NCBI GenBank assembly: GCA_024280885.1
Contig: JAJRPF010000061.1
Span: forward strand, 1 to 64,000
Reading direction: 5' to 3'
Source of the DNA: Planctomycetota bacterium
GTDB lineage: Bacteria; Planctomycetota; JAJSAM01; JAJVHW01
Length of the DNA: 64,000 nucleotides
This document shows, one piece after another, positions 3,220 to 59,741 of the stretch. The position numbers and the translations under genes are program-made. Under the pieces are notes generated by a model. The model saw only the letters and a list, made by a program, of their open reading frames with translations, was not told where the DNA came from and searched no databases. How positions within the stretch are numbered: position 1 is the stretch's first letter; every line of letters begins with the position of its first letter.

Positions 3220-3301
3220 GGCGGCGCACGACGTCGCTGCGTCAACGGGACGTCCGCGAAGACGGCCCGAGCACCCACTCCCACGACAACGCGGGAAACG
3301 C

Positions 3302-3505
3302 GAGCGAGTGGCGCGGTCTGTGCGCCAGCACAGGGCGTGACACTCGCGGTGAGGTGCAGGGACGGGATTCCGCCAGCGAAACCCGAATTCACGACGGGCT
3401 CAGTTCCACGTTGCGGTCCCTATCCGGGGCGCGTCAACGACTACCGAGCGCGGCCCCGGTTGAAGCTGCCGGAGCCCGGCCCGGAGCCGAACATGCGAGC
3501 GGGAG
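3302..3505 (+). repeat. Dispersed intergenic repeat, copy A, with covarying hairpin
   Basis: This stretch matches, imperfectly but throughout, the reverse complement of 14531-14741. It opens with a long hairpin at 3304-3347: GCGAGTG pairs with CACTCGC, a GCG/TGA internal loop follows, then CGGTCTGTGC pairs mostly with GCACAGGGCG around a GCCA loop. A conserved tail then reads GGTGAGGTGCAGGGACGGGA and later GGTTGAAGC. It sits between the convergent gamma-carbonic anhydrase and anti-sigma genes. The rest of the 3220-3756 gap holds hairpin copy B and a large inverted repeat; no gene is seen. Confidence 0.75.
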
Positions 3506-3541
3506 CGAGCGGGGAGCCGGAGGCGACCCAAACGCAATGAC

Positions 3542-3585
3542 GCGCGTGGCGCGGCTTGTGCGTCAGCACAAGCCGTGACACGCGC
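3542..3585 (+). repeat. Covarying hairpin, copy B
   Basis: Same architecture as the hairpin at 3304-3347 but with different stem bases: GCGCGTG pairs perfectly with CACGCGC, the internal loop GCG/TGA is unchanged, and CGGCTTGTGC pairs perfectly with GCACAAGCCG around a GTCA tetraloop. The conserved tail of copies A and C is absent; here the hairpin runs straight into an 18-bp inverted repeat. Confidence 0.75.
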
Positions 3586-3657
3586 CTCCTGTTTCCCGGG
3601 CCATGAGTCGCGGTTCCGCATCTCGCGACGTCCGGGGCGGGCCCGGGAAACAGGAGG
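3585..3657. repeat. Nested 18-bp inverted repeat between convergent genes
   Basis: CCTCCTGTTTCCCGGGCC at 3585-3602 is the exact reverse complement of 3640-3657. The 37-nt spacer holds a second stem, GTCGCG (3607-3612) with CGCGAC (3624-3629). There is no T-run after either arm, so this is not a standard intrinsic terminator, but it could act as a bidirectional terminator or RNA stabiliser between the convergent genes ending at 3219 and 3757. Confidence 0.7.
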
Positions 3658-7780: not shown

Positions 7781-7789
7781 GCCAGCGTT

Positions 7790-7824
7790 GAGGCTATAAG
7801 GCCCCAAGGCCGACCCGGTCTGTG
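7790..7824 (+). repeat. 35-bp dispersed repeat, copy 1
   Basis: Starts GAGGCTATAAGG and ends CCGGTCTGTG. It is identical over 35 bp to the reverse complement of 14783-14817. It lies 3 bp beyond the stop codon of the RraB-like gene. Read in the direction of that gene it contains GGCC-TTGG-GGCC followed by TTATAG, a weak hairpin, so a 3'-end role is possible. Confidence 0.9.
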
Positions 7825-7827
7825 CGG

Positions 7828-8229
7828 CTAGACGCGGGCTCCCCAGCCGTCGAAGACGCAGTCGAAGCGGTAGCCGGCGGTGTACATCCAGTGGACCCAA
7901 CGGCCGAGGCTGGAGGCGGAGAGCCGTGCTGGCTTCGTCACCCCATGAACGATGAAACCATCCTGGTCCGGATCGATATTCACCGTGTACTTCGTCTTCT
8001 CGCGCAGATGTGCCGCGAGGGCCTCGGCAGCCTCCGCCGGGGCACGGCGGTACGCGTAGCGCAGACGCACGGCGCGCTCCTTCTTGTACCCCGACTCGCG
8101 CATCATCATGTAGGTGCCGCGCGTACGCTCCAGCTGCCGGCGGAGGTTCGCCGCGTGCGTCTCTCGACGCGCAGCATCGGTCACAGGCAGATCGGAGTCC
8201 TCGGGCATGCCGGAGAGCCTACCGCGCAT
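7828..8229 (-). CDS. RraB-like (ribonuclease E inhibitor family) protein
   Basis: A 133-residue protein (126 if the ATG at 8208 is used). The C-terminal 60 residues match the RraB pattern: TKYTVNIDPDQDGFIVHGVTKP, then SSLGRWVHWMYTAGYRFDCVFDGWGA, ending with the conserved DGWGA. In E. coli RraB binds RNase E and changes its activity; relatives in other phyla have unproven targets. The N-terminal half is basic and helical (RRETHAANLRRQLERTRG). Neither candidate start has a strong ribosome binding site. Confidence 0.7.
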   Translation of the reverse strand: MRGRLSGMPEDSDLPVTDAARRETHAANLRRQLERTRGTYMMMRESGYKKERAVRLRYAYRRAPAEAAEALAAHLREKTKYTVNIDPDQDGFIVHGVTKPARLSASSLGRWVHWMYTAGYRFDCVFDGWGARV

Positions 8230-13080: not shown

Positions 13081-14424
13081 ATGTGCAACTCCCATCCCGC
13101 GCAGCACGGCCAGTCCCCGAAGCTCCCCTGGGTCTCGAAACATGGCCATCTTCCGAAGGGCGTCTCGCGCCGAGACGTGCTGAAGCTGACGGCCGCCGCT
13201 GCCGGCGTCGTCGCCATGGGCCCGTTCAAGGGTGTGGTGCCGATCGCCACGGGCGCTCCTCTGCAGAAGAAGCGCATGGTGGTCATCAACCTCTTCGGTG
13301 GCCACGACACGCTCAACATGTGCATCCCGCAGAACGTGCAGCCCTACTTCGAGCGGCGTTCCGCGATGGCAATCCAACCCGAGGACGCGCTGTCGCTGGC
13401 AGGCGGTCCGGGCAATACCGCGTACCGCGTGCATCCGAGTTTCACACGCATCCAATCGCTCTGGAACGACGGCGACGTCGCGTTCGTTCAGCGCACGGGC
13501 TATCCGAACGCCAACCTCAGCCACTTCACGAGCCAGGACATCTTCAGCCGTGGCGTGCGCTCTGACTTCCCCTCCGGCATCCCGCGCAGCGGATGGATCG
13601 CGCGCTACGCCGACCGCAACGCCCCGACGCCACTCGGCGCGGTCTCCATCGGCGTCGGTCGCCCGTTCGATTTCGTCGGTGGATCGTCAAAGCCCTTCCT
13701 CGTCCAGAACCTCAGTGGCTTCAAACTGAGAGGCGGCACGGGTCGCTCGCATCTCCACCGCGCCGGTGCCGCGCAGGGCATCCTGGAGCGTTTCTCAGGC
13801 GGCACGGGCAATACGTCGGATGCGCGCGACGCACTCGACCAGGCGTACCAGTTGGCCGACCAGATCCAGCAGTCGGTCACCGACTACTCGAGCACCGTCG
13901 ACTACTCGTACGACGACCCGACCCGCAATCGCACCTACACCGCGGCCGTCGGCTCCCGACTGCGCGACATGGCGAAGCTGATCCAATCCGGCTTCGAGTC
14001 ATCCATCTTCTTCACGGGCTACGGCGGCCTCGACACGCACGGCAACCAACTCCCGCGCCACGCCGATCTGATGCGCCAACTCGACCGCTCCATCGGCGCG
14101 TTCTCCGACGACATGAAGGCAATGGGCCTCTGGGAGGACATGGTGATCTGCGTCGTCACCGAGTTCGGTCGCCGCAACTTCGTGAACGGCTCTGACGGCA
14201 CCGACCACGGCCACGCGTATTGCACGCTGCTCGTCGGCGGCGGCGTCCGCGGCGGCATGTACGGCCCCGACCTCACGGAAGCCGACCTGAACCGGAACTA
14301 CCCGCTGCACGCAGTGGACTTCCGCGACATCTACCACGAGATCCTGCGCGACCACATGGGCGCAGGCGACATGGACTACGTCTTCCCGGAGACCAACCTG
14401 CCAAACCCCCTCGGCATCGTGTAG
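13081..14424 (+). CDS. DUF1501 protein with Tat signal
   Basis: A 447-residue protein beginning 9 bp after the DUF1800 stop, so probably translationally coupled. SRRDVLKL at residues 29-36 is a twin-arginine motif followed by an Ala-rich hydrophobic stretch, so export of a folded protein through Tat is likely. DUF1501 belongs to the alkaline-phosphatase/sulfatase-like fold: VVINLFGGHDTLNMCIPQ, LSHFTSQDIFSRG, FFTGYGGLDTHGNQL and VVTEFGRRNFVNGSDGTDHGHA, the last two holding likely metal ligands. The substrate is unknown. The stop codon is part of a strong hairpin that probably ends the three-gene run. Confidence 0.92.
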   Translation: MCNSHPAQHGQSPKLPWVSKHGHLPKGVSRRDVLKLTAAAAGVVAMGPFKGVVPIATGAPLQKKRMVVINLFGGHDTLNMCIPQNVQPYFERRSAMAIQPEDALSLAGGPGNTAYRVHPSFTRIQSLWNDGDVAFVQRTGYPNANLSHFTSQDIFSRGVRSDFPSGIPRSGWIARYADRNAPTPLGAVSIGVGRPFDFVGGSSKPFLVQNLSGFKLRGGTGRSHLHRAGAAQGILERFSGGTGNTSDARDALDQAYQLADQIQQSVTDYSSTVDYSYDDPTRNRTYTAAVGSRLRDMAKLIQSGFESSIFFTGYGGLDTHGNQLPRHADLMRQLDRSIGAFSDDMKAMGLWEDMVICVVTEFGRRNFVNGSDGTDHGHAYCTLLVGGGVRGGMYGPDLTEADLNRNYPLHAVDFRDIYHEILRDHMGAGDMDYVFPETNLPNPLGIV

Positions 14425-14465
14425 GAGGGGATCCCGTGTGCTCCGCACACGGTCAGCCCCTCCTA
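14422..14465 (+). terminator. Two-tier hairpin overlapping the DUF1501 stop codon
   Basis: TAGGAGGGG (14422-14430, containing the stop codon) pairs perfectly with CCCCTCCTA (14457-14465). Inside it, CCGTGTG pairs with CACACGG around CTCCG. There is no T-tract, so termination is inferred from strength and position, not from a canonical motif. Confidence 0.6.
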
Positions 14466-14478
14466 CCTGTTGCGCTTG

Positions 14479-14528
14479 TGGCGACTCCGTCGCCACCGCT
14501 GTGTTGTGTTTGCGGCGACTCCGTCGCC
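14479..14528 (+). repeat. Duplicated small hairpin
   Basis: GGCGACTCCGTCGCC occurs twice (centred near 14487 and 14521), each a 6-7 bp stem with a TCC loop, about 34 bp apart with similar flanks (TGTGGCGACT and TGCGGCGACT). It lies between the DUF1501 terminator-like hairpin and repeat copy C. Confidence 0.7.
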
Positions 14529-14530
14529 AC

Positions 14531-14741
14531 CCCTCGCCTTCGCTCGGGTGTTCGACTACGGGACGGGTTCCCGTGGCTTCAACCGGGCCTGCGCTCGGCG
14601 TTCATTGCCCCGCATCGGAGTCGGCTCCACGACGTGGAGAGACGGACGTCGCGAGGGCGGGTTTCGCCAGCGGAGTCCCCTCCCTGCGCCTCACCGCGAG
14701 CGTCACGGTGCGTGCGAAACGCACCCACCGCGCCACTCGCT
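14531..14741 (-). repeat. Dispersed intergenic repeat, copy C, with covarying hairpin
   Basis: The reverse complement of this stretch aligns with 3302-3505 from end to end. Its hairpin is at 14696-14740; read on the minus strand it is GCGAGTG with CGCTCGC, an internal loop GCG/TGA, and CGGTGGGTGC with GCACGCACCG around a five-base loop. The tail GGTGAGGCGCAGGGAGGGGA and GGTTGAAGCC match copy A. It lies in the 456-bp gap between the convergent DUF1501 and dihydroorotase genes. No gene is seen in this gap. Confidence 0.75.
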
Positions 14742-14782
14742 CGCTGGCTCGTAAGCCCGCCGCCCACGGCGTCGCATAACCC

Positions 14783-14817
14783 CACAGACCGGGTCGGCCT
14801 TGGGGCCTTATAGCCTC
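14783..14817 (-). repeat. 35-bp dispersed repeat, copy 2
   Basis: Exact reverse complement of 7790-7824. It lies 42 bp beyond repeat copy C, between the convergent DUF1501 and dihydroorotase genes. Relative to the DUF1501 gene it has the same orientation as copy 1 has relative to the RraB-like gene. Confidence 0.9.
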
Positions 14818-14880
14818 CACGAGAGAAGCCATGGACGGCCAAGTCGGCTCCGGTACGCGGCCCCAGGCAACGCCGGCGGG

Positions 14881-16221: not shown

Positions 16222-16380
16222 CTGTCGTCCCTCATGCCCGGTCGTCGGCGAACGCCGATCGTGTGAGCGCAGATCGTCGCCCGTCCGCCTTCGTGTGAAA
16301 CGGGATTCTCGAAGGGGCGGCTCGCGTTTCGGGTTCGATCCAGCCCGCGCAGCCTGGAATCGTACTCGACGTCGGCCGAC

Positions 16381-16582
16381 GAGGAGAGAGCCCCGGGGCT
16401 CGGATCGTACCCGGGCGTCTGCGGGCCACCTGGCCCCGACAAGAGAGCTCATCGCTCCGCAGCCGACCGGGGACGGCGAGGCGTTCTCTCGAGTACGCCC
16501 CGCGGTCCCCGTCGAGCGGCGGACCGAGGGCGTCGCCGTAGCCGAGCCAGATCGACCGCCCCTCGCCGGGTACCATCCAAGC
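16381..16582. repeat. GC-rich structured intergenic repeat, copy R1
   Basis: One of four related elements (others at 27459, 31379, 40488). It begins with the perfect palindrome GAGCCCCGGGGCTC followed by GGATCGTACCCGGGCG, then GGCCCCGACAAGAG, then the stem-forming GACCGGGGACGGCG, and ends GGTACCATCCAAG. The last 60 bp are shared only with the copy at 40488. It sits 3' of the minus-strand FG-GAP gene and 5' of dihydroorotase. Confidence 0.8.
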
Positions 16583-19945: not shown

Positions 19946-20394
19946 GCGCTGCGCTCTCCCATCGCTACGACGCCCTCCATCCACAATCCGCCCGTGTGGT
20001 CCAACCTGATCCCTTGGAGGATAGCAGGCCGAGTCAGAGCCGCCATCGGGAGATCCGTATCGGAGCCTCGTCCTGGACACCGCGAGGTGCCGCTCGCGTC
20101 ATCGAGAGCACGCTCCCCCCCCGAGGCGGACTCCCATCATATTCTCAGAGATGCCGTGATTGCCGCCTGCTCCGAGACGATCACCACACGGGGCCCGCCC
20201 GCGTCGTCTCCACGTCCGGTGCCCGGCTCGCTTTCTTCGCCCCCTGCGCCCAGACTGTTGATTCCGCCCGCAGCAGAGAGAAGGGGCGCCTCCGCGATCG
20301 TTCAGAACCCGACGATCGCCGCCGCGTGGCTTGTACTTCTCTCAAGATCCGGGAGCGCATGGCGGCCGGAAGCGTCCACACTCTCGGAAGGAAA
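19946..20394. other. 449-bp intergenic region between divergent genes
   Basis: Lies between the starts of the FG-GAP protein (minus) and the first sigma-sensor fusion (plus), so it must hold both promoters. Open frames extend from the sigma gene into it, but they show none of the conserved sigma sequence. It contains a run of seven C near 20114. I could not identify specific promoter boxes. Confidence 0.5.
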
Positions 20395-22998
20395 ATGAAC
20401 GACGACGCATCCCCCGTCCGGATCGAGGACCTGCTGCAGCATGCGGAGTGGGCCCGGGGGCTTGCACGTAGCCTGTTGCGCGATCCGTCGCGTGCCGACG
20501 ACATCGTGCAGGATGCGTGGCTGGCGGCGTTGCGTGCACCTCCGCAGGACCCGCGTCGGATTCGCGGTTGGCTCTCGCGAGTGATCCGCAATCGGGTTAT
20601 CGAACTGTACAGGTACGACCGGATCCGGAAGCACGACGACCTCATCGATGAGCCGCTCGACGCGCGTCAGGATGTGGCGGGGGCGGTTGCGCGCACCGAG
20701 CAAACGCGACTCGTTGCCGAGATGGTGCTCGAACTTCCGGACGCATACCGCGACGTGCTCGTGTTGCGCTACATCGACGACCTTTCCACGAACGTCGTTG
20801 CCACGAAGCTTGGCATCCCGGAAGCGACAGTGCGCAGCCGGACCTTCCGCGCCCTGGAGCAGATTCGCGGCCGACTGGACCGGCGCTGCGCTCGTTCCGG
20901 GAAGGACTGGCGCGCGGGTATGGCGGTGCTTGCGCTCGGCATCCGTGGCGCGGACGGGGCGGCCACCGCGCCGCGTCACACTCCCCGTTCCGTCCCGTCA
21001 CGTCGCCTGCGGCACGTAGCCGTCATGACCGGTGCGACGCTCGTACTCGGGACGTGTACGCTTCTCGCCTGGATGGTCCTGTTTGACGCAAGCGACACCG
21101 CGCCGCCGAGCGGCAGCGCAACTCTCATGGGCGAAGACAGAGCGGGCCGCGCAGACGCGCCGCGCCGCGTGCACGCGAACGGCGGATCGTCCGCATCGCA
21201 GCTGGCCCCCATCGTGACGCGGCATGACGTCGGACCGGAGGCGGCATCGCCGTCGTCGGTTCTCCGTGTGCACGGAACCGTGATCGGCGACGTGCCCGAC
21301 GTGGGTATCGACGTGCGGTTGAGCTGCCGCGTTCTGGACGTCCACGTGCGCGACCAACTCGACGTTTCGTTCATCGGACGGGCTCGACACGACGGATACG
21401 AGGTCGAGATCGATACGTCGATGCTGGATCCAAAGCGAGCGCTCGAACTCGAGATCAAGGTGAGCGATCCGGAACACGTCGTCACAACGATGCAGGTGGC
21501 TCTGCCACAGCCGTCCGCAGACGTCCGGGACTTCGAGGCACCGGCACTGCGCCTCGTCCGCGCGGCGATGTTCTGGGGTTCTCTCTTCGACGAGCACGGG
21601 GCGCCCATCGTCGGCGCGGAGTGTGCTCTCTACCGATTGTATGGCGACTGGCCGAGTCCGATCACCGAGGACGCCGCCGAGACAAACTGGGACGGGTACT
21701 ACGACCTGCGGCTACAGCCCGGAGCAGAGTACGTCATCGTGCTCGACGCCGCGGGGTACGTTCCGGGAATGACGGCGATGACCTGGAAGACGGCCGAAGA
21801 GACGCCACAGTGGCGCATCGAACTCGGGCGTGGCGAAGATCTGCGTGGCAGCGTGCACACACCGCCGGGATACGACGCGTCGCGCACATCCGTCCTTCTG
21901 CGTCGGCCGGCGTTGCCGAAGCCGGTCGGCGCACCAGCCGGGAACGCGATCGCCTTCTGCGACGGCGGGGTCGCGCGCTCCAGGGTGCTCATACCTGTGG
22001 AGGGAGACGGGACGTTCGCATTCGACGGGTTGCGAGCACTCGACGCGGTCATCTCCGTCGCGTGTGACGATGCGATGAGGTCCGTGCTACGAGCAAGTCG
22101 GAGGGCGGTCACGTTCCCGGCGTCGGTACAGCAGCTTCGCGTAGACGCCGGCGTCGTGCGCTTTCGGATTACCGCGGGCGATCGTGAAGTAGCGAACGCG
22201 GAGATCGAAGTCCACGACGCCGACGACCGGCTGTTGCTCACGACCGATGCCGCGGGCCGCGCGTTCCTCCTCGCCGTTCCGGGAGCGTCCTACGAGGCAA
22301 CGGTCCGGGCACCGGGTCACTCGACGTCGCAGCACACGTTCACGGCACCCGACCGGAACGCCACGGAGGATGTGACGATCCCGCTCCAGCCGCTAGTGAT
22401 GGACGCGGTGTGGCGCATGCGACTGCGCGCCCCCAACGGTGCCACCGTGCGGCGAGTCGGAGTTCAGATCCAGGCGCTCGCGTCGGATGTGCAGGCTCCA
22501 GGCGCACCATTCGAATTCGACATCGATGCCGACGCGCGCGGCCTGCTGGTGCTGCCGCCGATCCCGCCAGGGACCTACGAGGCCGTCATTCGGCCAGGCG
22601 GCGGTTGGAACGACCCGCGCTCTCCGTACCTAGAGGTTCGCACGTCGATCGTGCTCGAGTCGGGCATCTCCGACGTTGAAGACCTCGACGCGATGGCAGG
22701 TGGGCGGCTGCGTGTGCGCGCTGACTTGCGAGGGCGCGACGAGGGGGCAGTCCAGGTGCGGGTGCTCGACGCCGCGGGAAATCGCGTGGACGTGCAGTTT
22801 CGCCGTGCCGACACCGGGGCGCGCGACCCGTTGATCCTCTATAGCGGTCGCGAGACCTGGGTCGAGCCGGCGTTGCCGCCGGGCGTCTACCAACTCGACT
22901 TCTCGGACGACTCGCTCGACACGGGACTCGTTCCGTTCGAGATCCAGTCGGGCGAGGTCACGTTCACCATCGTCCCGTTGCGCGCTCGCCCCGAGTAG
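20395..22998 (+). CDS. ECF sigma factor fused to membrane anchor and extracytoplasmic domains (fusion 1)
   Basis: An 867-residue fusion. Sigma region 2 spans residues 12-80 (DDIVQDAWLAAL, IRGWLSRVIRNRVIELYR); sigma region 4 spans 112-162 (LPDAYRDVLVLRYIDDLSTNVVATKLGIPEATVRSRTFRAL). A basic linker leads to one transmembrane helix at 208-230. The remaining 637 residues would be outside the cytoplasm and contain at least three carboxypeptidase-regulatory-like beta modules (SLFDEHGAPIVGAECALY, ITAGDREVANAEIEVHD, LRAPNGATVRRVGVQI), with FRADTGA-type strands near the end. ECF sigma factors are normally about 180 residues, so the tail is a true addition. The ATG at 20395 follows GGAAGGAAA and matches the N-terminus of the paralogues. 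No anti-sigma gene is adjacent. I infer direct signal sensing by the tail; release of the sigma part would need proteolysis or action at the membrane. Confidence 0.85.
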   Translation: MNDDASPVRIEDLLQHAEWARGLARSLLRDPSRADDIVQDAWLAALRAPPQDPRRIRGWLSRVIRNRVIELYRYDRIRKHDDLIDEPLDARQDVAGAVARTEQTRLVAEMVLELPDAYRDVLVLRYIDDLSTNVVATKLGIPEATVRSRTFRALEQIRGRLDRRCARSGKDWRAGMAVLALGIRGADGAATAPRHTPRSVPSRRLRHVAVMTGATLVLGTCTLLAWMVLFDASDTAPPSGSATLMGEDRAGRADAPRRVHANGGSSASQLAPIVTRHDVGPEAASPSSVLRVHGTVIGDVPDVGIDVRLSCRVLDVHVRDQLDVSFIGRARHDGYEVEIDTSMLDPKRALELEIKVSDPEHVVTTMQVALPQPSADVRDFEAPALRLVRAAMFWGSLFDEHGAPIVGAECALYRLYGDWPSPITEDAAETNWDGYYDLRLQPGAEYVIVLDAAGYVPGMTAMTWKTAEETPQWRIELGRGEDLRGSVHTPPGYDASRTSVLLRRPALPKPVGAPAGNAIAFCDGGVARSRVLIPVEGDGTFAFDGLRALDAVISVACDDAMRSVLRASRRAVTFPASVQQLRVDAGVVRFRITAGDREVANAEIEVHDADDRLLLTTDAAGRAFLLAVPGASYEATVRAPGHSTSQHTFTAPDRNATEDVTIPLQPLVMDAVWRMRLRAPNGATVRRVGVQIQALASDVQAPGAPFEFDIDADARGLLVLPPIPPGTYEAVIRPGGGWNDPRSPYLEVRTSIVLESGISDVEDLDAMAGGRLRVRADLRGRDEGAVQVRVLDAAGNRVDVQFRRADTGARDPLILYSGRETWVEPALPPGVYQLDFSDDSLDTGLVPFEIQSGEVTFTIVPLRARPE

Positions 22999-27024: not shown

Positions 27025-27458
27025 GGGGTGACGTGCGCGGAGCGACGGACGCGGCGATCGACTGGGAGTCGGAGTGGCGACTGACGTCCATGTGGCTCAC
27101 GTCGCTCATCATCCATGACGGACGCGTAGCCGCAAGGGCGTGTCCGCCCGACAGATCCGCTCCAGCGCTCCGGCGGTCGCGATGACGAGCGCGCGCCGCG
27201 TGAGATCGGCACAGTCCGCCCCTCGATCTCCTCCACGAGCACGCGCTACTGGCGATCACGTCGGCAAGGGAGTCGTCACTCGGCACCTGCGTCACTACAT
27301 GCGCACTCGAATAGACGCCGAGTCGCCGCGACGTCGCTCCGGCTGGCGGGGTCGAGATCGGCGACATTCGCGAGCGGTTGATCCATGCGAGGTTCCCCTG
27401 GCCTCACAGCGGAAGCTCCGCCCCCGCAGCCTGAGCATCAGCGACACCGAAGATCGAT
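27025..27458. other. Upstream region of the helical repeat gene, no gene recognised
   Basis: 434 bp between the GTG at 27024 and repeat R2. Minus-strand open frames cross it but show no domain. In the frame of the repeat protein a stop lies about 75 bp upstream of the GTG. Confidence 0.4.
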
Positions 27459-27612
27459 GAGGAGAGAGCCCCGGGGCTCGGATCGTACCCGGGCGTCGGC
27501 GGGCAACTTGGCCCCGACAAGAAAACCCGTCGATCCGCCGCTGACCGGGGACGGCGGACCGGTGTCTGGAATTCGGCGGAGCCCCGAACCGCACCGCAGT
27601 CCCCGAGCGCGA
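27459..27612. repeat. GC-rich structured intergenic repeat, copy R2
   Basis: Shares with R1 the start GAGGAGAGAGCCCCGGGGCTCG, GATCGTACCCGGGCG, GGCCCCGACAAGA and GACCGGGGACGGCGG. Here CCGCCG and CGGCGG flank the GACCGGGGA loop as a perfect stem. It lies between divergent genes, 65 bp before the start of sigma fusion 2. This differs from R1, R3 and R4, which lie 3' of genes. Confidence 0.8.
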
Positions 27613-31306: not shown

Positions 31307-31378
31307 CTCGAGGCGATCCCGAACGCGCGGGTCCTGCCGGAACCGCAGCACGTGCCCGGATGTGCCATCGCTTCGTTT

Positions 31379-31497
31379 CGCGGATCGTACCCGGGCGTCG
31401 GCGGGCGACCTGGCCCCGACAAGAGACATCGTAGCTCCGCCGCCGACCGGGGACGGCGGGGCGTTGTCGCGAGTCCGGCGGAGTTCGGCACACCGAC
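31379..31497. repeat. GC-rich structured intergenic repeat, copy R3 (truncated)
   Basis: Starts at CGCGGATCGTACCCGGGCG, lacking the GAGCCCCGGGGCTC palindrome of the other copies, then GGCCCCGACAAGAG and CCGCCG-ACCGGGGA-CGGCGG, a perfect 6-bp stem. It lies in the 221-bp gap between convergent sigma fusion 2 and the TPR gene. Confidence 0.8.
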
Positions 31498-40487: not shown

Positions 40488-40692
40488 CAGAGCCCCGGGG
40501 CTCGGATCGTACCCTCCGGGGGCATCGGCGGGCTGCCGGGCCTCAAGAAGAGACATCGGTGCGTCGCCGACCGGGGACGGCGGGGCGGCGTCTTGAATTC
40601 GAAGGAGCCCCGAGGTGCCCGGTGTCTGGCGGACCGAGGGCGTCGCGATGGCCGAGGCGGTCGGGCCGCCCGTCACCGGGCACCATCCAAGG
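40488..40692. repeat. GC-rich structured intergenic repeat, copy R4
   Basis: Starts with AGAGCCCCGGGGCTCGGATC, has an insertion after GTACCC, then GAAGAGACATCGG and CGCCGACCGGGGACGGCG, and ends GGGCACCATCCAAGG. Its last 60 bp match R1. It ends 17 bp from the stop of the minus-strand chagasin-like gene and begins 22 bp from the oxidoreductase start. Confidence 0.8.
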
Positions 40693-54324: not shown

Positions 54325-56331
54325 TCATTCCTCGAAGAGAATCACGGTGTCACCTCGAACCTTCCACTTCAACGAGTGGCCGCTCGCCAGACAGATCGCA
54401 CGCAGCGCGCCCTCGATCGTGTCATCCGCGACGCGCAGCGAGACCGTCACACCGAAGACGTCGCCGGGCGTACCGGAAGCGAAGGTCACCTGGAGCGCGC
54501 TCTCTCTGCGAATGCGCGCGAGCAATCGGTTGAGGGGTTCGTCGGTGACGTCGAACGAGATCCTCTCGTCTCGCAGTCGATCGGCGACGTCGGCCTTGCG
54601 AAGCTCGACATCCATCTCGGAGACGCTGCCCGCGATGATCTCGATCACGCGTGCCTCGCGCACGTGTCCACGCGCGGAGACCGTCAGTTCAATCTCTCCC
54701 TCGGGAAGGTAATCGATCGTCGCGGGTTCTCCGTCGCGGCTCGAGGCCGACGCTCCCGCGACAGTCGGCTCCGGGATCTCCGGGACGCTCGCGGTGTCGA
54801 TCGATGGGGGAACCATCCAACGAAACCGCACACGGGCCGACTTCACGACCTCGCCTGAACTACTTGTCACACGAATGACCGCGGTCCCCGCCGGACCTCC
54901 CATCACCAACGCAACCTCCACCTCGTCTCCGTAGCGCCCGCTCACGCGGAAGATATTCGAGCGCTGCAACCCGCCCTTGCGCGCGAAGAGTGACCCGAAC
55001 TGCTTCTTCAGCTCCGCCGAGAACGCGCCGTGCTCGTCCGTGGTCGCCACCAGGCCCGAGTGATAGATGGAAGCCCCGGGAACGCCGATCCCGCTCGGGT
55101 CCACGACAGTTCCGCGCACGACGAGGGATTGCGGCGCGTTCGGATCGCGAGAAGCAGGCTCGATGACCTCGGTCGCCATTCCAGCCGACCACTCATCCGA
55201 TCCAGAGTGGAGGACCACGCGATCAGCTTCCACCGCCAACCGCAGTCCGCACACCCTCACGAGAGTCTTGAGTGCCACGACGGCGGTGACGTCAGAGAAC
55301 TGCATCGTCATCGGCATGGAGTCGAGTGACGCCGCCGAGCGCACATCAGCATGGATCGCGATCCCGGTGATGTCTGAGATCTCCGCAAAGACGGTGCGAG
55401 CTGTGTCACTCGCGAAGCGCAGAACGTCGATCCGCTCCTGAAGCAGCTCAGCGACGGTTCGAGTGTCTTCCTTGGACATTTCCGCCACGTCGAGTCGCTC
55501 GTCGGCTGGCGGCGGTCGGACTCGCACACGGTTCGATCGCGGCGATCGCGCGACGGACGCCACCGACTCGACCTCGGGTGCTGCTGCAATCTCGGGATCA
55601 ACGGAATGTGCGTCGGCATCGGCGCGATTCAGTGCGTTCTCTCCGCCACTGAGCCCCCACCACGCCCCGCCCAAGAGAGCGAGCCCCAAGACGATCCCAC
55701 CTGCGAGTTTCCATGCCATCGCCAATCCCCCCACGGCCACGGTGGCCGCTCCTCCGACTGCCGCATTCACTGTGTCGCGATCGAGCAGCGGTAACAGCAC
55801 CACCGCCAGCGGACGACCGCGTCCGACGTCGCGCTCCAACCGCCCTCGTAGCTGCTCCCGGCCCCGTCGCAGGCGCGCCCGCGTCGTCTCGAGTGGCGCG
55901 CCCATCTGCGTCGCGACCTCCGCGACGGCGAGACCCTCGAGGTAGCGCAGAAGCAACGCCTGCCGGTACGGTTCGGGGAGCGCGACGACAGCGGTCGCGA
56001 CCTGCGCGTGAGCGTCAGCCCGCGCAGCGAGATCCGCCGGATCGCTCACGGAACTCGCTTCCCCGCGCGCGACGGCCTTCTCGCGCGCACGCCGTCGCCG
56101 CCGAGAGCGTCCCTGTTTGCGCGCCGCGTTGCGAGCCACGGTAGTCAACCATCCGCGCGGTGACTCACCGGTTGACGGCGGACTCGTCATCGCCGCGAGC
56201 CACGTCTGCTGCTCGACGTCGTCGGCCTCGTTCTCGTCGCGCGTCAACGCGAGCGCGAGCGTCCGCACCCACTCCCGGTGCGCGAGCAGGAGATCGAGGT
56301 GAACGGCGGGATCCGGTGCGATGCCCATCAT
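54325..56331 (-). CDS. ECF sigma factor fused to membrane anchor and two STN-like domains (fusion 4)
   Basis: A 668-residue fusion. Sigma region 2 is at 13-80 (ADDVEQQTWLAAM, PRGWLTTVARNAARKQGRSRRRRR), region 4 at 117-167 (LPEPYRQALLLRYLEGLAVAEVATQMGAPLETTRARLRRGR). A shorter linker motif (RPLAVVLLPLLD) and one transmembrane helix (208-227) follow. The tail differs from fusions 1-3: an STN-like domain at about 300-376 (TARTVFAEISDITGIAIHADV, MTMQFSDVTAVVALKTLVRV, RVVLHSG), one carboxypeptidase-regulatory-like module at 404-445 (VVRGTVVDPSGIGVPGASIYH), and a second STN-like domain at 590-668 (ISFDVTDEPLNRLLARIRRES, VTVSLRVADDTIEGALRAI, DTVILFEE). STN domains occur at the N-termini of secretins and signalling TonB receptors and interact with periplasmic partners. 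Either of two adjacent ATGs (56331, 56328) may be used, after GTAGGG. Confidence 0.85.
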   Translation of the reverse strand: MMGIAPDPAVHLDLLLAHREWVRTLALALTRDENEADDVEQQTWLAAMTSPPSTGESPRGWLTTVARNAARKQGRSRRRRRAREKAVARGEASSVSDPADLAARADAHAQVATAVVALPEPYRQALLLRYLEGLAVAEVATQMGAPLETTRARLRRGREQLRGRLERDVGRGRPLAVVLLPLLDRDTVNAAVGGAATVAVGGLAMAWKLAGGIVLGLALLGGAWWGLSGGENALNRADADAHSVDPEIAAAPEVESVASVARSPRSNRVRVRPPPADERLDVAEMSKEDTRTVAELLQERIDVLRFASDTARTVFAEISDITGIAIHADVRSAASLDSMPMTMQFSDVTAVVALKTLVRVCGLRLAVEADRVVLHSGSDEWSAGMATEVIEPASRDPNAPQSLVVRGTVVDPSGIGVPGASIYHSGLVATTDEHGAFSAELKKQFGSLFARKGGLQRSNIFRVSGRYGDEVEVALVMGGPAGTAVIRVTSSSGEVVKSARVRFRWMVPPSIDTASVPEIPEPTVAGASASSRDGEPATIDYLPEGEIELTVSARGHVREARVIEIIAGSVSEMDVELRKADVADRLRDERISFDVTDEPLNRLLARIRRESALQVTFASGTPGDVFGVTVSLRVADDTIEGALRAICLASGHSLKWKVRGDTVILFEE

Positions 56332-57546: not shown

Positions 57547-57752
57547 CTAGCAGTCTGTCGGAGTAGTCCGTCGAGGACCGGATTCGTCCAGGGGCGTCGT
57601 CCGTCGTGCTTGACGGGCGAAGTCCCTGCCGAAGCAACATCGAGCCTGGCAAGTGCGGCGGACGGCGTTCCTGGGCGGAGTTGACGGTTCGCAAGCACGA
57701 ATTGCTACGGCCCATTCGCCGGTTCCGATGGACTACTCCGACAGGCTGCTAG
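57547..57752. mobile_element. 206-bp MITE-like element with 23-bp terminal inverted repeats
   Basis: CTAGCAGTCTGTCGGAGTAG at 57547 (continuing TCC to 57569) and the reverse complement of 57730-57752 match at 22 of 23 positions. The outermost CTAG at both ends is palindromic, so it may be a 4-bp target duplication (or TA), leaving 19-bp inverted repeats. There is no room for a transposase gene, so this would be a non-autonomous element. It lies between the SDR gene start and the stop of sigma fusion 5; the TAG stop of that gene (57749-57751) is inside the terminal CTAG. Confidence 0.8.
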
Positions 57753-59575
57753 AGCTTGAGGAAGATGGGAGGCGCCGAGATCGCCCGCAGCCGTCCCCGG
57801 GCCTCGTCGGTCAGTGGCACGACGCGCAAGATCGAGTCGTAGAGGCGGAGAGCCTCCGCCGAGCTACGCGTGACCTGATCCCCGTCGAACATCAGCAGCG
57901 CGGCGAGCCCGTCACGCTCGCTCTCGAGCAGCGTCTCCGAGAGTCCCTCGGCCCACTCGTGCGCGAGTTGCTCGATTTCCGCCTCGCGCTCCTTCGCCGG
58001 CCTCACCAGCCGCCCAAGGTCTTTCAGCATCCCCTTCGCGACCGACGCGCGCGTGCCATCGTGCTTGACGAGTCTGACCGCCTGCCCCCATTGAATAGCG
58101 GAGCTGAAGAGATCGAGGTTGGAGACGTCGCGCACACTGTCGGGCCGGAGGAGCGTATTCTGTTCGGCCGTCAGGAGCGCCGTCACCGCGTCGAAGAACT
58201 TCGTGCGCGAAACGACGTCGTCGTGGAGTTTCTGCAATTCGAGCGTCTCGGCCCCGTACGTGGCGACGCGCTGCTTCTCGCGCGCGATCTGCGCGTTCGC
58301 GATCCGATCGAGTTCCCGCTCCTGTGTCGTCGTCAACGGAGTACCGGCGGCTCGCAATGTGGCCGCGATCAGGTTGGACATGAACGGCGGACTCGCATAC
58401 GGCCCGTTGGTGCCGATCCCCGGGAGACTCCCGGCGATGCGGGCCGCAGCAGCGATCAGCGGCGCGTTCTTGTTCTGGATCCCGGTGATGACCTCCGGGG
58501 GCAGTTCCTCGCCCGCGTCAATCGCTGACCGCAACGACACCAAGAGTTGGACGAGTTCGCCGGTGGCGAGCCCCACCTGGTCCCAGTCGATCTCGTCCAG
58601 CACATCGTCGTACGCGCCAAACGAGATCGGCGCGCCATCCCTGCTCGTGTCGGCGCTGGCCATCGCGTCGGACAACGAGATGCCGAGCTCGGCAACCTCG
58701 GCTTCGAGTCCTGCACTGTGCTCTCTCGACTGGGCGAGTTCCTGCTCGAGTGCGCGGATACGCGCGTCACGTTTCCCGAGGCTCCCCGAGAGTGTCTCCG
58801 CGCGTCCGCGCTCCGTGTCGAGGGCACGCGTCGCACCAACCAGCGCTGCCTCGTGCGCCTCCCCATCGTCGCCCACCGCGGGAGCTGCGATCCATCCGCC
58901 GCTCAGTCCGAGCACCAGAGCCGCCGCGGCAACCAATCCGAACTTCGTGTTGGCAGTCATCAGAGCAACTCCTGTGATGGTTCCGGCACCGCCCGCGGTC
59001 GCTGCCGCGCCGCGATCCAGTCGGGCCAGGGGAACGAGGGCGAGGGCCCATGCGCGGCGATCCCCGGCGTGCTGCGTATCCAGCTCGGCACGCAGTCGTT
59101 CGAGCGCCCGCCGCGTACGCGTACGCACCGTCTCGACGGGACAGCCGAGGCGACGCGCGACTTCGCGCGGCGGCAGCCCCTCGAAGAATCGCAGCACGAG
59201 AACGTCGCGATAGTTCGCGTCGAGTTGCAGCACGAGTTCGGAGACACGTCGGTGCGACTCCGCGTCGGCGACCGACTCAGCGACCGACGGAACGGCCTTC
59301 GCCGCCTCGCCGCGCGCCTCGTGCACGGCCCTGGACTGCGCCGCGCGGGACTGCGCAGCGCGACCACTGTCGGCCGCCTTGCTGCGAACCACCTTCGACA
59401 GCCACCCGCGCACACTCTCTGCATGTCGCGGCGGAGTGCGCAACGACGCCAGCCAGGTCTCCTGCATGACATCCTGCGCGACGTCGTCGTCGTGTACGAG
59501 CCGACGTGCCAGCGCGTGCATCCACGTGGAGTGCTCGAGGAGCGTCTCGATCGGCAGAGGTACGGGCGCGGTCAT
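57749..59575 (-). CDS. ECF sigma factor fused to membrane anchor and coiled-coil/helical extracytoplasmic region (fusion 5)
   Basis: A 608-residue fusion. Sigma region 2 is at 11-72 (VAQDVMQETWLASLRTPP, VRGWLSKVVRSKAADS) and region 4 at 118-165 (LDANYRDVLVLRFFEGLPPREVARRLGCPVETVRTRTRRAL). The loop between them has a small repeat (RAAQ, SRAAQ, SRAVH, residues 72-85). The linker motif DRRAWALALVPLARLD (172-187) matches fusions 2 and 3. One transmembrane helix is at 209-231. The tail has no beta modules: a coiled coil at about 245-300 (LDTERGRAETLSGSLGKRDA, ALEQELAQSREHSAG) and a helical domain to the end. The ATG at 59575 follows GGTGAG. The stop codon lies in the end of the MITE-like element. 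Confidence 0.85.
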   Translation of the reverse strand: MTAPVPLPIETLLEHSTWMHALARRLVHDDDVAQDVMQETWLASLRTPPRHAESVRGWLSKVVRSKAADSGRAAQSRAAQSRAVHEARGEAAKAVPSVAESVADAESHRRVSELVLQLDANYRDVLVLRFFEGLPPREVARRLGCPVETVRTRTRRALERLRAELDTQHAGDRRAWALALVPLARLDRGAAATAGGAGTITGVALMTANTKFGLVAAAALVLGLSGGWIAAPAVGDDGEAHEAALVGATRALDTERGRAETLSGSLGKRDARIRALEQELAQSREHSAGLEAEVAELGISLSDAMASADTSRDGAPISFGAYDDVLDEIDWDQVGLATGELVQLLVSLRSAIDAGEELPPEVITGIQNKNAPLIAAAARIAGSLPGIGTNGPYASPPFMSNLIAATLRAAGTPLTTTQERELDRIANAQIAREKQRVATYGAETLELQKLHDDVVSRTKFFDAVTALLTAEQNTLLRPDSVRDVSNLDLFSSAIQWGQAVRLVKHDGTRASVAKGMLKDLGRLVRPAKEREAEIEQLAHEWAEGLSETLLESERDGLAALLMFDGDQVTRSSAEALRLYDSILRVVPLTDEARGRLRAISAPPIFLKL

Positions 59576-59741
59576 GGTCTCACCGGTATACACGGACGGG
59601 CGGCCGGAATCGGTTCACGAGAAGTTCCGAGGCGGGCGACGGAGGCAAGACGACGGAAGTCGCTTAGACTGGCCCGGTGTCTCCGAGGTCTTCCCGCGCG
59701 CGATGTTGTCACCGACCCGGCCCATGCACAGGTCAACGCGG

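What the first reader, a model, noticed from the sequence alone, without database searches (positions are those of the whole stretch)
3304..3347. Three-copy hairpin supported by compensatory base changes
Seen: copies at 3304-3347, 3542-3585 and 14696-14740 (reverse) all read 7-bp stem, GCG/TGA internal loop, 10-bp stem with constant GTGC/GCAC, and 4-5 nt loop. Outer stem position 4 is A-T in copy A and C-G in copy B, and the three central pairs of the inner stem are TCT/AGG, CTT/AAG and TGG/GCA. These are paired changes that keep pairing (with a few wobbles or mismatches). Such covariation indicates selection for structure. All copies lie between convergent genes. Inference: an RNA 3'-end element, or a protein-binding or mobile palindromic repeat.
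Basis: seen in the sequence. Interest (0 to 1): 0.6.

Follow-up and report, generated by a model that had tools for sequence, protein, structure and literature searches.

The report
Gene-end hairpin repeat copying host sequence
The three hairpins belong to a roughly 240-base structured repeat, about 90 full copies in this one bacterium and none found in its relatives, that sits just behind genes and carries a hairpin whose outer arm looks like a reversed copy of the neighbouring gene's own end, which suggests an unusual way for a repeat to insert or settle in a genome.

Summary
Observation confirmed and far larger than reported. Copies A, B and C belong to a 238-240 bp repeat unit: hairpin HP1, GTGAGG, long-range helix P2, small hairpin HP2, CAACA. 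The genome (6.3 Mb, 74 contigs) holds about 90 full HP1s; 83 arrays of 1-4 segments were examined. A 28-copy alignment supports one 52-pair fold (97.7% of cells paired; covariation above all 500 shuffles). No copy was found in 391 other genomes of the phylum, same genus included. New: the CAACA side faces the 3' end of the next gene in 67 of 72 cases. There a locus-specific hairpin (stem about 20 bp, up to 33) runs into the gene's stop codon. Its inner core resembles HP1; its outer arms are unique. Seven gene ends compared with the sister species are empty there. In three, the gene-side arm is conserved coding sequence, so the other arm looks like an inverted copy of the host gene's end. Best reading: a non-autonomous, replication-coupled mobile element, perhaps terminator-like, whose junction hairpin is rebuilt from the target by template switching. 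The mobilising enzyme is unknown. It is not a REP, MITE, group II intron or Rfam family by the tests run. New variant of a known kind; copying mechanism inferred.

The parts
3304..3347 (+). HP1 hairpin, copy A (finding)
3301..3539 (+). Full repeat unit A: HP1, GTGAGG (3349-3354), P2 helix, variable middle, HP2, CAATG end
   Evidence: nhmmer hmm 2-238, E 8e-64; alignment A2
3368..3383 (+). P2 helix 5' strand TTCCGCCAGCGAAACC
   Evidence: fold of 28 copies
3458..3474 (+). P2 helix 3' strand GGTTGAAGCTGCCGGAG
3511..3529 (+). HP2 small hairpin; G-C/U-A and C-G/A-U double changes across copies
   Evidence: helix 10
3542..3585 (+). Terminal hairpin, copy B, keeps the HP1 sequence type; an exception in that no stop codon abuts it
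3585..3657 (.). Separate 18-bp inverted repeat just right of copy B (CCTCCTGTTTCCCGGGCC / GGCCCGGGAAACAGGAGG)
   Evidence: read from sequence
14505..14742 (-). Full repeat unit C
   Evidence: nhmmer hmm 2-238, E 6e-52
14696..14740 (-). HP1 hairpin, copy C (finding)
14478..14496 (-). Extra tail fragment with a second HP2-type hairpin
14421..14466 (+). Gene-junction hairpin overlapping the TAG stop (14422-14424) of the DUF1501 gene 13081-14424; 10-bp outer and 8-bp inner stem
   Evidence: fold -34.5 kcal/mol, z -5.2; for DUF1501

Best explanation
The finding is part of a species-specific, non-autonomous mobile repeat, a bacterial analogue of a SINE or MITE, that settles directly downstream of genes. 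Read in the sense of the host gene the order is: stop codon, junction hairpin, T/G-rich GTGTTGCGTTTGTG, HP2', body', ...CCTCAC; long copies continue with HP1 and a ~35-45 nt leader. The element folds on the strand opposite to the gene. Shown: copy number, near-exact ends, fold, fixed orientation to the gene, empty sites in the sister species, and a junction hairpin of ~20 bp whose inner core resembles the element's own HP1 cores while its outer gene-side arm is native gene end. Inferred: (1) insertion is coupled to DNA replication through hairpin (single-strand) recognition; (2) at or after insertion, DNA synthesis switches template on the hairpin and copies the gene's last bases into the other arm, making the palindrome; (3) the hairpin plus T/G-rich tract then serves the host gene as a 3'-end or terminator-like structure. 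The mobilising enzyme is not identified.
For: About 90 full HP1 matches in G000. 83 arrays in 1.2 Mb; the gene at the CAACA side faces the element with its 3' end in 67 of 72. 52-pair fold, 97.7% paired, 81 double-change cells against 30 +/- 5 shuffled. G.U:A.C is 46:2 in HP1 on the forward strand, 18:2 without the near-invariant G.U pair. 50 junction hairpins, stem mode 20 bp; 22 begin inside the coding sequence and 19 in the stop codon. Such hairpins are absent at 678 genes away from the element (mean longest perfect stem 4.3 against 4.1 in shuffles; 8.5 near it) and rare elsewhere. Identical inner 6-mers in 42 pairs of loci against 1 for outer 6-mers, of 946; 10 of 44 inner 7-mers also occur as HP1 cores, 0 of 44 outer. 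Seven sister-species (G001) gene ends lack both element and palindrome; in L116+7155, L064 and L085 the gene-side arm is conserved coding sequence. Orientation follows replication strand (skew p 6e-4; permutation p 0.0013). Eight short copies start at GTGAG after unrelated bases.
Against: No enzyme found with the element: the single RT is retron-like and the two Y1 transposases are flanked by other repeats. No target duplication seen (6 sites). Copies are only 81% identical, so no recent insertion is seen directly. The T/G-rich tract is a weak terminator tail. Intergenic sequence of G001 is too diverged to show exactly where native sequence ends, so slow compensatory evolution of the arm is not excluded. 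The strand preference of junction hairpins (gene-sense GT:AC 22:9, p 0.03) is opposite to that of HP1. The excess of shared inner 7-mers alone is within the range of column shuffles (12 against mean 4.2, maximum 22).
Confidence: 0.55

Rival explanations
1. Transcription terminators shaped by selection: gene-end hairpins are needed as terminators, and the arm in the intergenic space co-evolves to pair with the constrained gene-end arm; the repeat spreads passively.
For: Hairpin length is held near 20 bp; GT exceeds AC on the mRNA strand (22:9); position immediately after stop codons; a T/G-rich tract follows.
Against: Perfect stems of 19-27 bp reaching into coding sequence are much more than termination needs; 678 genes away from the element do without such hairpins; the tail is T-poor.
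Confidence: 0.2
2. Retrotransposition by target-primed reverse transcription of a forward-strand RNA, with 5' truncation at RNA structure (just after HP1, within P2).
For: Segments beginning at model position 48-50 or ~162-197 with intact 3' ends; forward-strand G.U bias; truncated copies often lie nearest the gene.
Against: The 5' ends at GTGAG are nearly exact rather than scattered; truncated units also occur in other array positions; the only RT in the genome is retron-like, with no element nearby.
Confidence: 0.15
3. ssDNA transposition by a HUH (RAYT-like) tyrosine transposase acting on the hairpins, as for REPs (a specific form of the best explanation).
For: Two RAYT-like genes in the genome; the repeats of one (type c) lie on the leader side of the element in 20 of 25 cases; replication-strand bias; no target duplication.
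Against: Both RAYT genes are flanked by other repeat families, not by this element; no GTAG/CGTC tag at the hairpin foot; the strand preference of HP1 is opposite to the gene-sense strand.
Confidence: 0.3

Closest known systems
REP / REPIN elements with RAYT transposases (PMC3733652)
   Same: Extragenic, high copy, hairpin-based, species-specific; RAYT-like genes are present in this genome
   Different: 238-bp unit with a long-range fold, direct tandem arrays, no GTAG/CGTC tag, fixed orientation to a host gene, gene-derived palindrome; the RAYT genes here are flanked by other repeats
Group IIC introns (PMC10190682)
   Same: Sit next to a DNA stem-loop and exploit the replication fork's lagging strand
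   Different: No maturase-type RT found in the genome, no ribozyme match, too short; the stem-loop here is partly made of host gene sequence
BOX-type modular repeats (from memory, not tested)
   Same: Modular intergenic repeat with stem-loops and variable tandem number
   Different: Unrelated sequence; a fixed stop-codon junction is not known for BOX to my knowledge
Template-switch-generated hairpins (PMC8794818)
   Same: Reverse-complement copying in replication produces perfect stems and paired changes
   Different: Described as single mutation events in RNA genes; here it would recur at the junction of one repeat family

Membership tests
Any Rfam RNA family | Score at or above a gathering threshold | tested here: not met
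   0 in the window; weak chance matches only in E-value mode
REP (GTAG/CGTC superfamilies) | Short 20-40 bp palindrome with unpaired GTAG or CGTC tag at one end | tested here: not met
   Unit 238-240 bp; HP1 flanks are AGA/ACA and GGTGAGG; definition from PMC3733652
REP (GTAG/CGTC superfamilies) | Copies flanking a RAYT gene | tested here: not met
   Two Y1_Tnp genes found; no element in the 20 kb around either
MITE of a DDE transposon | Terminal inverted repeats | tested here: not met
   Ends GTGAGG... and ...CAACA are not inverted copies
MITE of a DDE transposon | Target-site duplication | tested here: not met
   No excess of shared 4-6-mers at 6 short-form sites (small sample)
Group II intron (IIC) | Intron-encoded RT/maturase in the genome | tested here: not met
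   Only RVT_1 hit is retron-like; assembly 91.5% complete
Group II intron (IIC) | Ribozyme core / domain V | tested here: not met
   No Rfam group II match in the window; unit ~240 nt
Group II intron (IIC) | Insertion beside a stem-loop, replication-strand bias | tested here: met
   a resemblance in behaviour, not membership
Integron cassette attC | GTTRRRY/RYYYAAC boxes and IntI integrase | not tested
   Inspection shows AAC upstream but no GTT downstream of HP1; integrase not searched
Intrinsic terminator | Stem-loop followed by a U-tract, at transcript 3' ends | tested here: inconclusive
   Stable stems, T/G-rich tail, but no consensus T-tract at the one site scanned; no RNA data

The most novel reading that the evidence does not exclude
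A class of mobile element whose insertion builds its own boundary: the element brings an inner hairpin core, joins the 3' end of a gene, and replication copies the gene's last 7-25 bases, stop codon included, into the opposite arm, so that every copy carries a palindromic imprint of its host gene.
Probability: 0.3. Interest if true: 0.82.

Novelty: new variant of a known kind. Interest (0 to 1): 0.62.

Why it matters
If the inverted copy of the gene end is made during insertion, it records each event in the sequence and gives a natural, many-fold replicated record of template switching and hairpin-guided insertion in a bacterium. It would also be a repeat that turns gene ends without hairpins into gene ends with strong ones, which could change transcript ends at dozens of loci in one species. 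It is also a caution that covariation within a repeat need not mean RNA function alone, because template switching can produce paired changes in one step.

Tried and rejected
Known Rfam RNA: no match. tRNA: none. Coding: every frame is interrupted in part of the copies, length not a multiple of three, no codon periodicity. Terminal-inverted-repeat MITE: no inverted ends, no duplications. Presence in relatives: 59 genomes by blastn gave only trivial short hits; the covariance model found none in 148 relatives or in 391 other phylum genomes (the two sets overlap); exact-pattern scans of the GTDB genome and viral collections gave none, so the organism could not be named. Autonomous copy carrying a gene: none in the ~1.26 Mb examined. 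Four paper searches found nothing relevant.

Full report
Observation. They are not a three-copy family. A blastn search of the window's own genome (G000, 6.3 Mb, 74 contigs, unnamed) with 3290-3600 returned 66 matches at 74% identity or more. A covariance model of HP1 plus 36 nt returned 146 matches, about 90 of them full length. Many contigs end inside arrays, as expected of true repeats.

Anatomy. A profile search of 1.2 Mb taken from around the copies found 139 segments in 83 arrays. The unit is 238-240 nt: HP1 (44 nt), GTGAGG, the 5' strand of a long-range helix P2, a variable middle, the 3' strand of P2, HP2 and CAACA. Copies are 81% identical on average (72-94%). On 28 copies a 52-pair fold keeps 97.7% of cells paired, with 14 doubly changing pairs, 81 double-change cells and no shuffle as good; sliding the partner destroys it. 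HP1 alone: 97.4%, 48 double-change cells. Departures are G.U rather than A.C on the forward strand (46:2; 18:2 when the near-invariant G.U pair is left out), so the forward strand is the one that folds, as RNA or single-stranded DNA. Long copies have a conserved ~35-45 nt leader before HP1; eight first-position short copies start at GTGAG after unrelated bases; some copies are tails only. A second body type with the same hairpin class and CAACGCAACA end forms a 169-bp tandem on C50, and a third body follows one junction hairpin in L075. The unit has no conserved open frame.

Position. With genes called by a simple codon-usage method of mine, the gene at the CAACA side points its 3' end at the element in 67 of 72 cases, against half of background intergenic regions; 39 of 67 two-sided arrays are convergent against 100 of 537. 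Between that gene and the element lies a hairpin specific to the locus: 50 scored cases, stem mode 20 bp, mostly triloops closed by C-G, mismatches clustered about 7-12 pairs from the loop. The outer end falls in the stop codon in 19, inside the coding sequence in 22 and after it in 9. Genes elsewhere have nothing of the kind, nor does the sister genome in the 0.39 Mb scanned. In the window, unit C shows it at 14421-14466, overlapping the stop of the DUF1501 gene; array A/B is an exception, its last hairpin keeping the HP1 sequence with no stop codon abutting it.

Where the hairpin comes from. Inner cores repeat between loci (42 pairs of loci share the inner 6-mer against 1 for outer 6-mers) and 10 of 44 inner 7-mers also occur as HP1 cores; no outer 7-mer does. 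Part of the inner sharing reflects the restricted composition of the cores: for 7-mers the observed 12 identical pairs lie within the range of column shuffles (mean 4.2, maximum 22). A few junction hairpins still show HP1 signatures (L089, L098, L107). Outer arms match the gene. Seven gene ends could be compared with the sister species G001; all are empty there, without element or stop-codon palindrome; at one of them G001 has an ordinary hairpin about 80 nt further on. In L116+7155 (..RYR*), L064 (..YFR* / ..YFK*) and L085 (a protein ending RIDGLTIA.., conserved in G001 and G004) the gene-side arm lies in conserved coding sequence. The other arm is therefore most simply an inverted copy of the gene end. 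Template switching in replication is a proposed source of such perfect stems (PMC8794818). Stepwise compensation cannot be excluded because intergenic sequence is too diverged.

Mobility. Restriction to one genome, empty sites, near-exact ends and orientation bias along contigs favour mobility. Forward orientation goes with the C-richer strand (p 6e-4), and same-contig arrays agree in orientation more than their genes would predict (113 against 36 pairs; permutation p 0.0013), as for elements that use single-stranded DNA at the fork. Caveat: the contigs are unordered, skew is weak, and arrays on one contig are not fully independent. No target duplication was seen. One RT (retron-like) and two RAYT-like transposases exist. 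The RAYTs are flanked by other repeats that also occur in the window. One of those repeats, and further repeat types, lie almost only on the leader side of the element. The mobilising enzyme remains open.

Function. For the host gene the junction hairpin followed by GTGTTGCGTTTGTG resembles an intrinsic terminator with a poor T-tract; GT exceeds AC on the mRNA strand (22:9). This step is inferred; no transcript data exist here.

Known kinds. It works somewhat like REPs (hairpin, RAYT candidates) and like group IIC introns (stem-loop neighbour, lagging strand; PMC10190682), but fails defining tests of both and of MITEs and Rfam families. I file it as a new variant of structured interspersed repeats, with the gene-copied palindrome as the feature that could make it new in kind.

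Noticed in passing
window 7786-7830 and 14777-14821; L143 about 1360-1405 and 2500-2540: Repeat GAGGCTATAAGGCCCCAAGGCCGACCCGGTCTGTG, in opposite orientations in the window, also flanks a RAYT-like gene (C6) on both sides: apparently the REP family of that transposase.
   Followed up: partly
window 16377-16581, 27455-27587, 31357-31489, 40544-40691; L144 around 1300 and 2100: A second repeat family (CCGTCCCCGGTCGGCGGCGGAGC) flanks the second RAYT-like gene (C10) on both sides.
   Followed up: partly
L142 1267-2277 (G000 C59:523725): Single retron-like reverse transcriptase (St85-type but below the NCBIfam cut-off; PADLOC RT_XIII and RT_X best), with CCCCGCTGTGTGC tandem repeats upstream.
   Followed up: partly
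L121 9996-10385 (G000 C50): Tandem 169-bp units with an HP1-like hairpin and CAACGCAACA end but a different body.
   Followed up: partly
Leader side of the arrays, e.g. L069 near 1850-2050: Long palindromic repeat with arms GTGCCAGGCTCAATT...AATTGAGCCAGGCAC, found almost only upstream of this element (59 motif hits upstream, 4 far).
   Followed up: partly
window 19996-22998, 54325-56331, 57749-59593: Three large proteins with sigma-70 region 2/4 domains, two of them fused to carboxypeptidase-regulatory-like domains.
   Followed up: no
window 3585-3657: 18-bp inverted repeat with a 37-nt spacer directly beside hairpin B, of a different type from the gene-junction hairpins.
   Followed up: no
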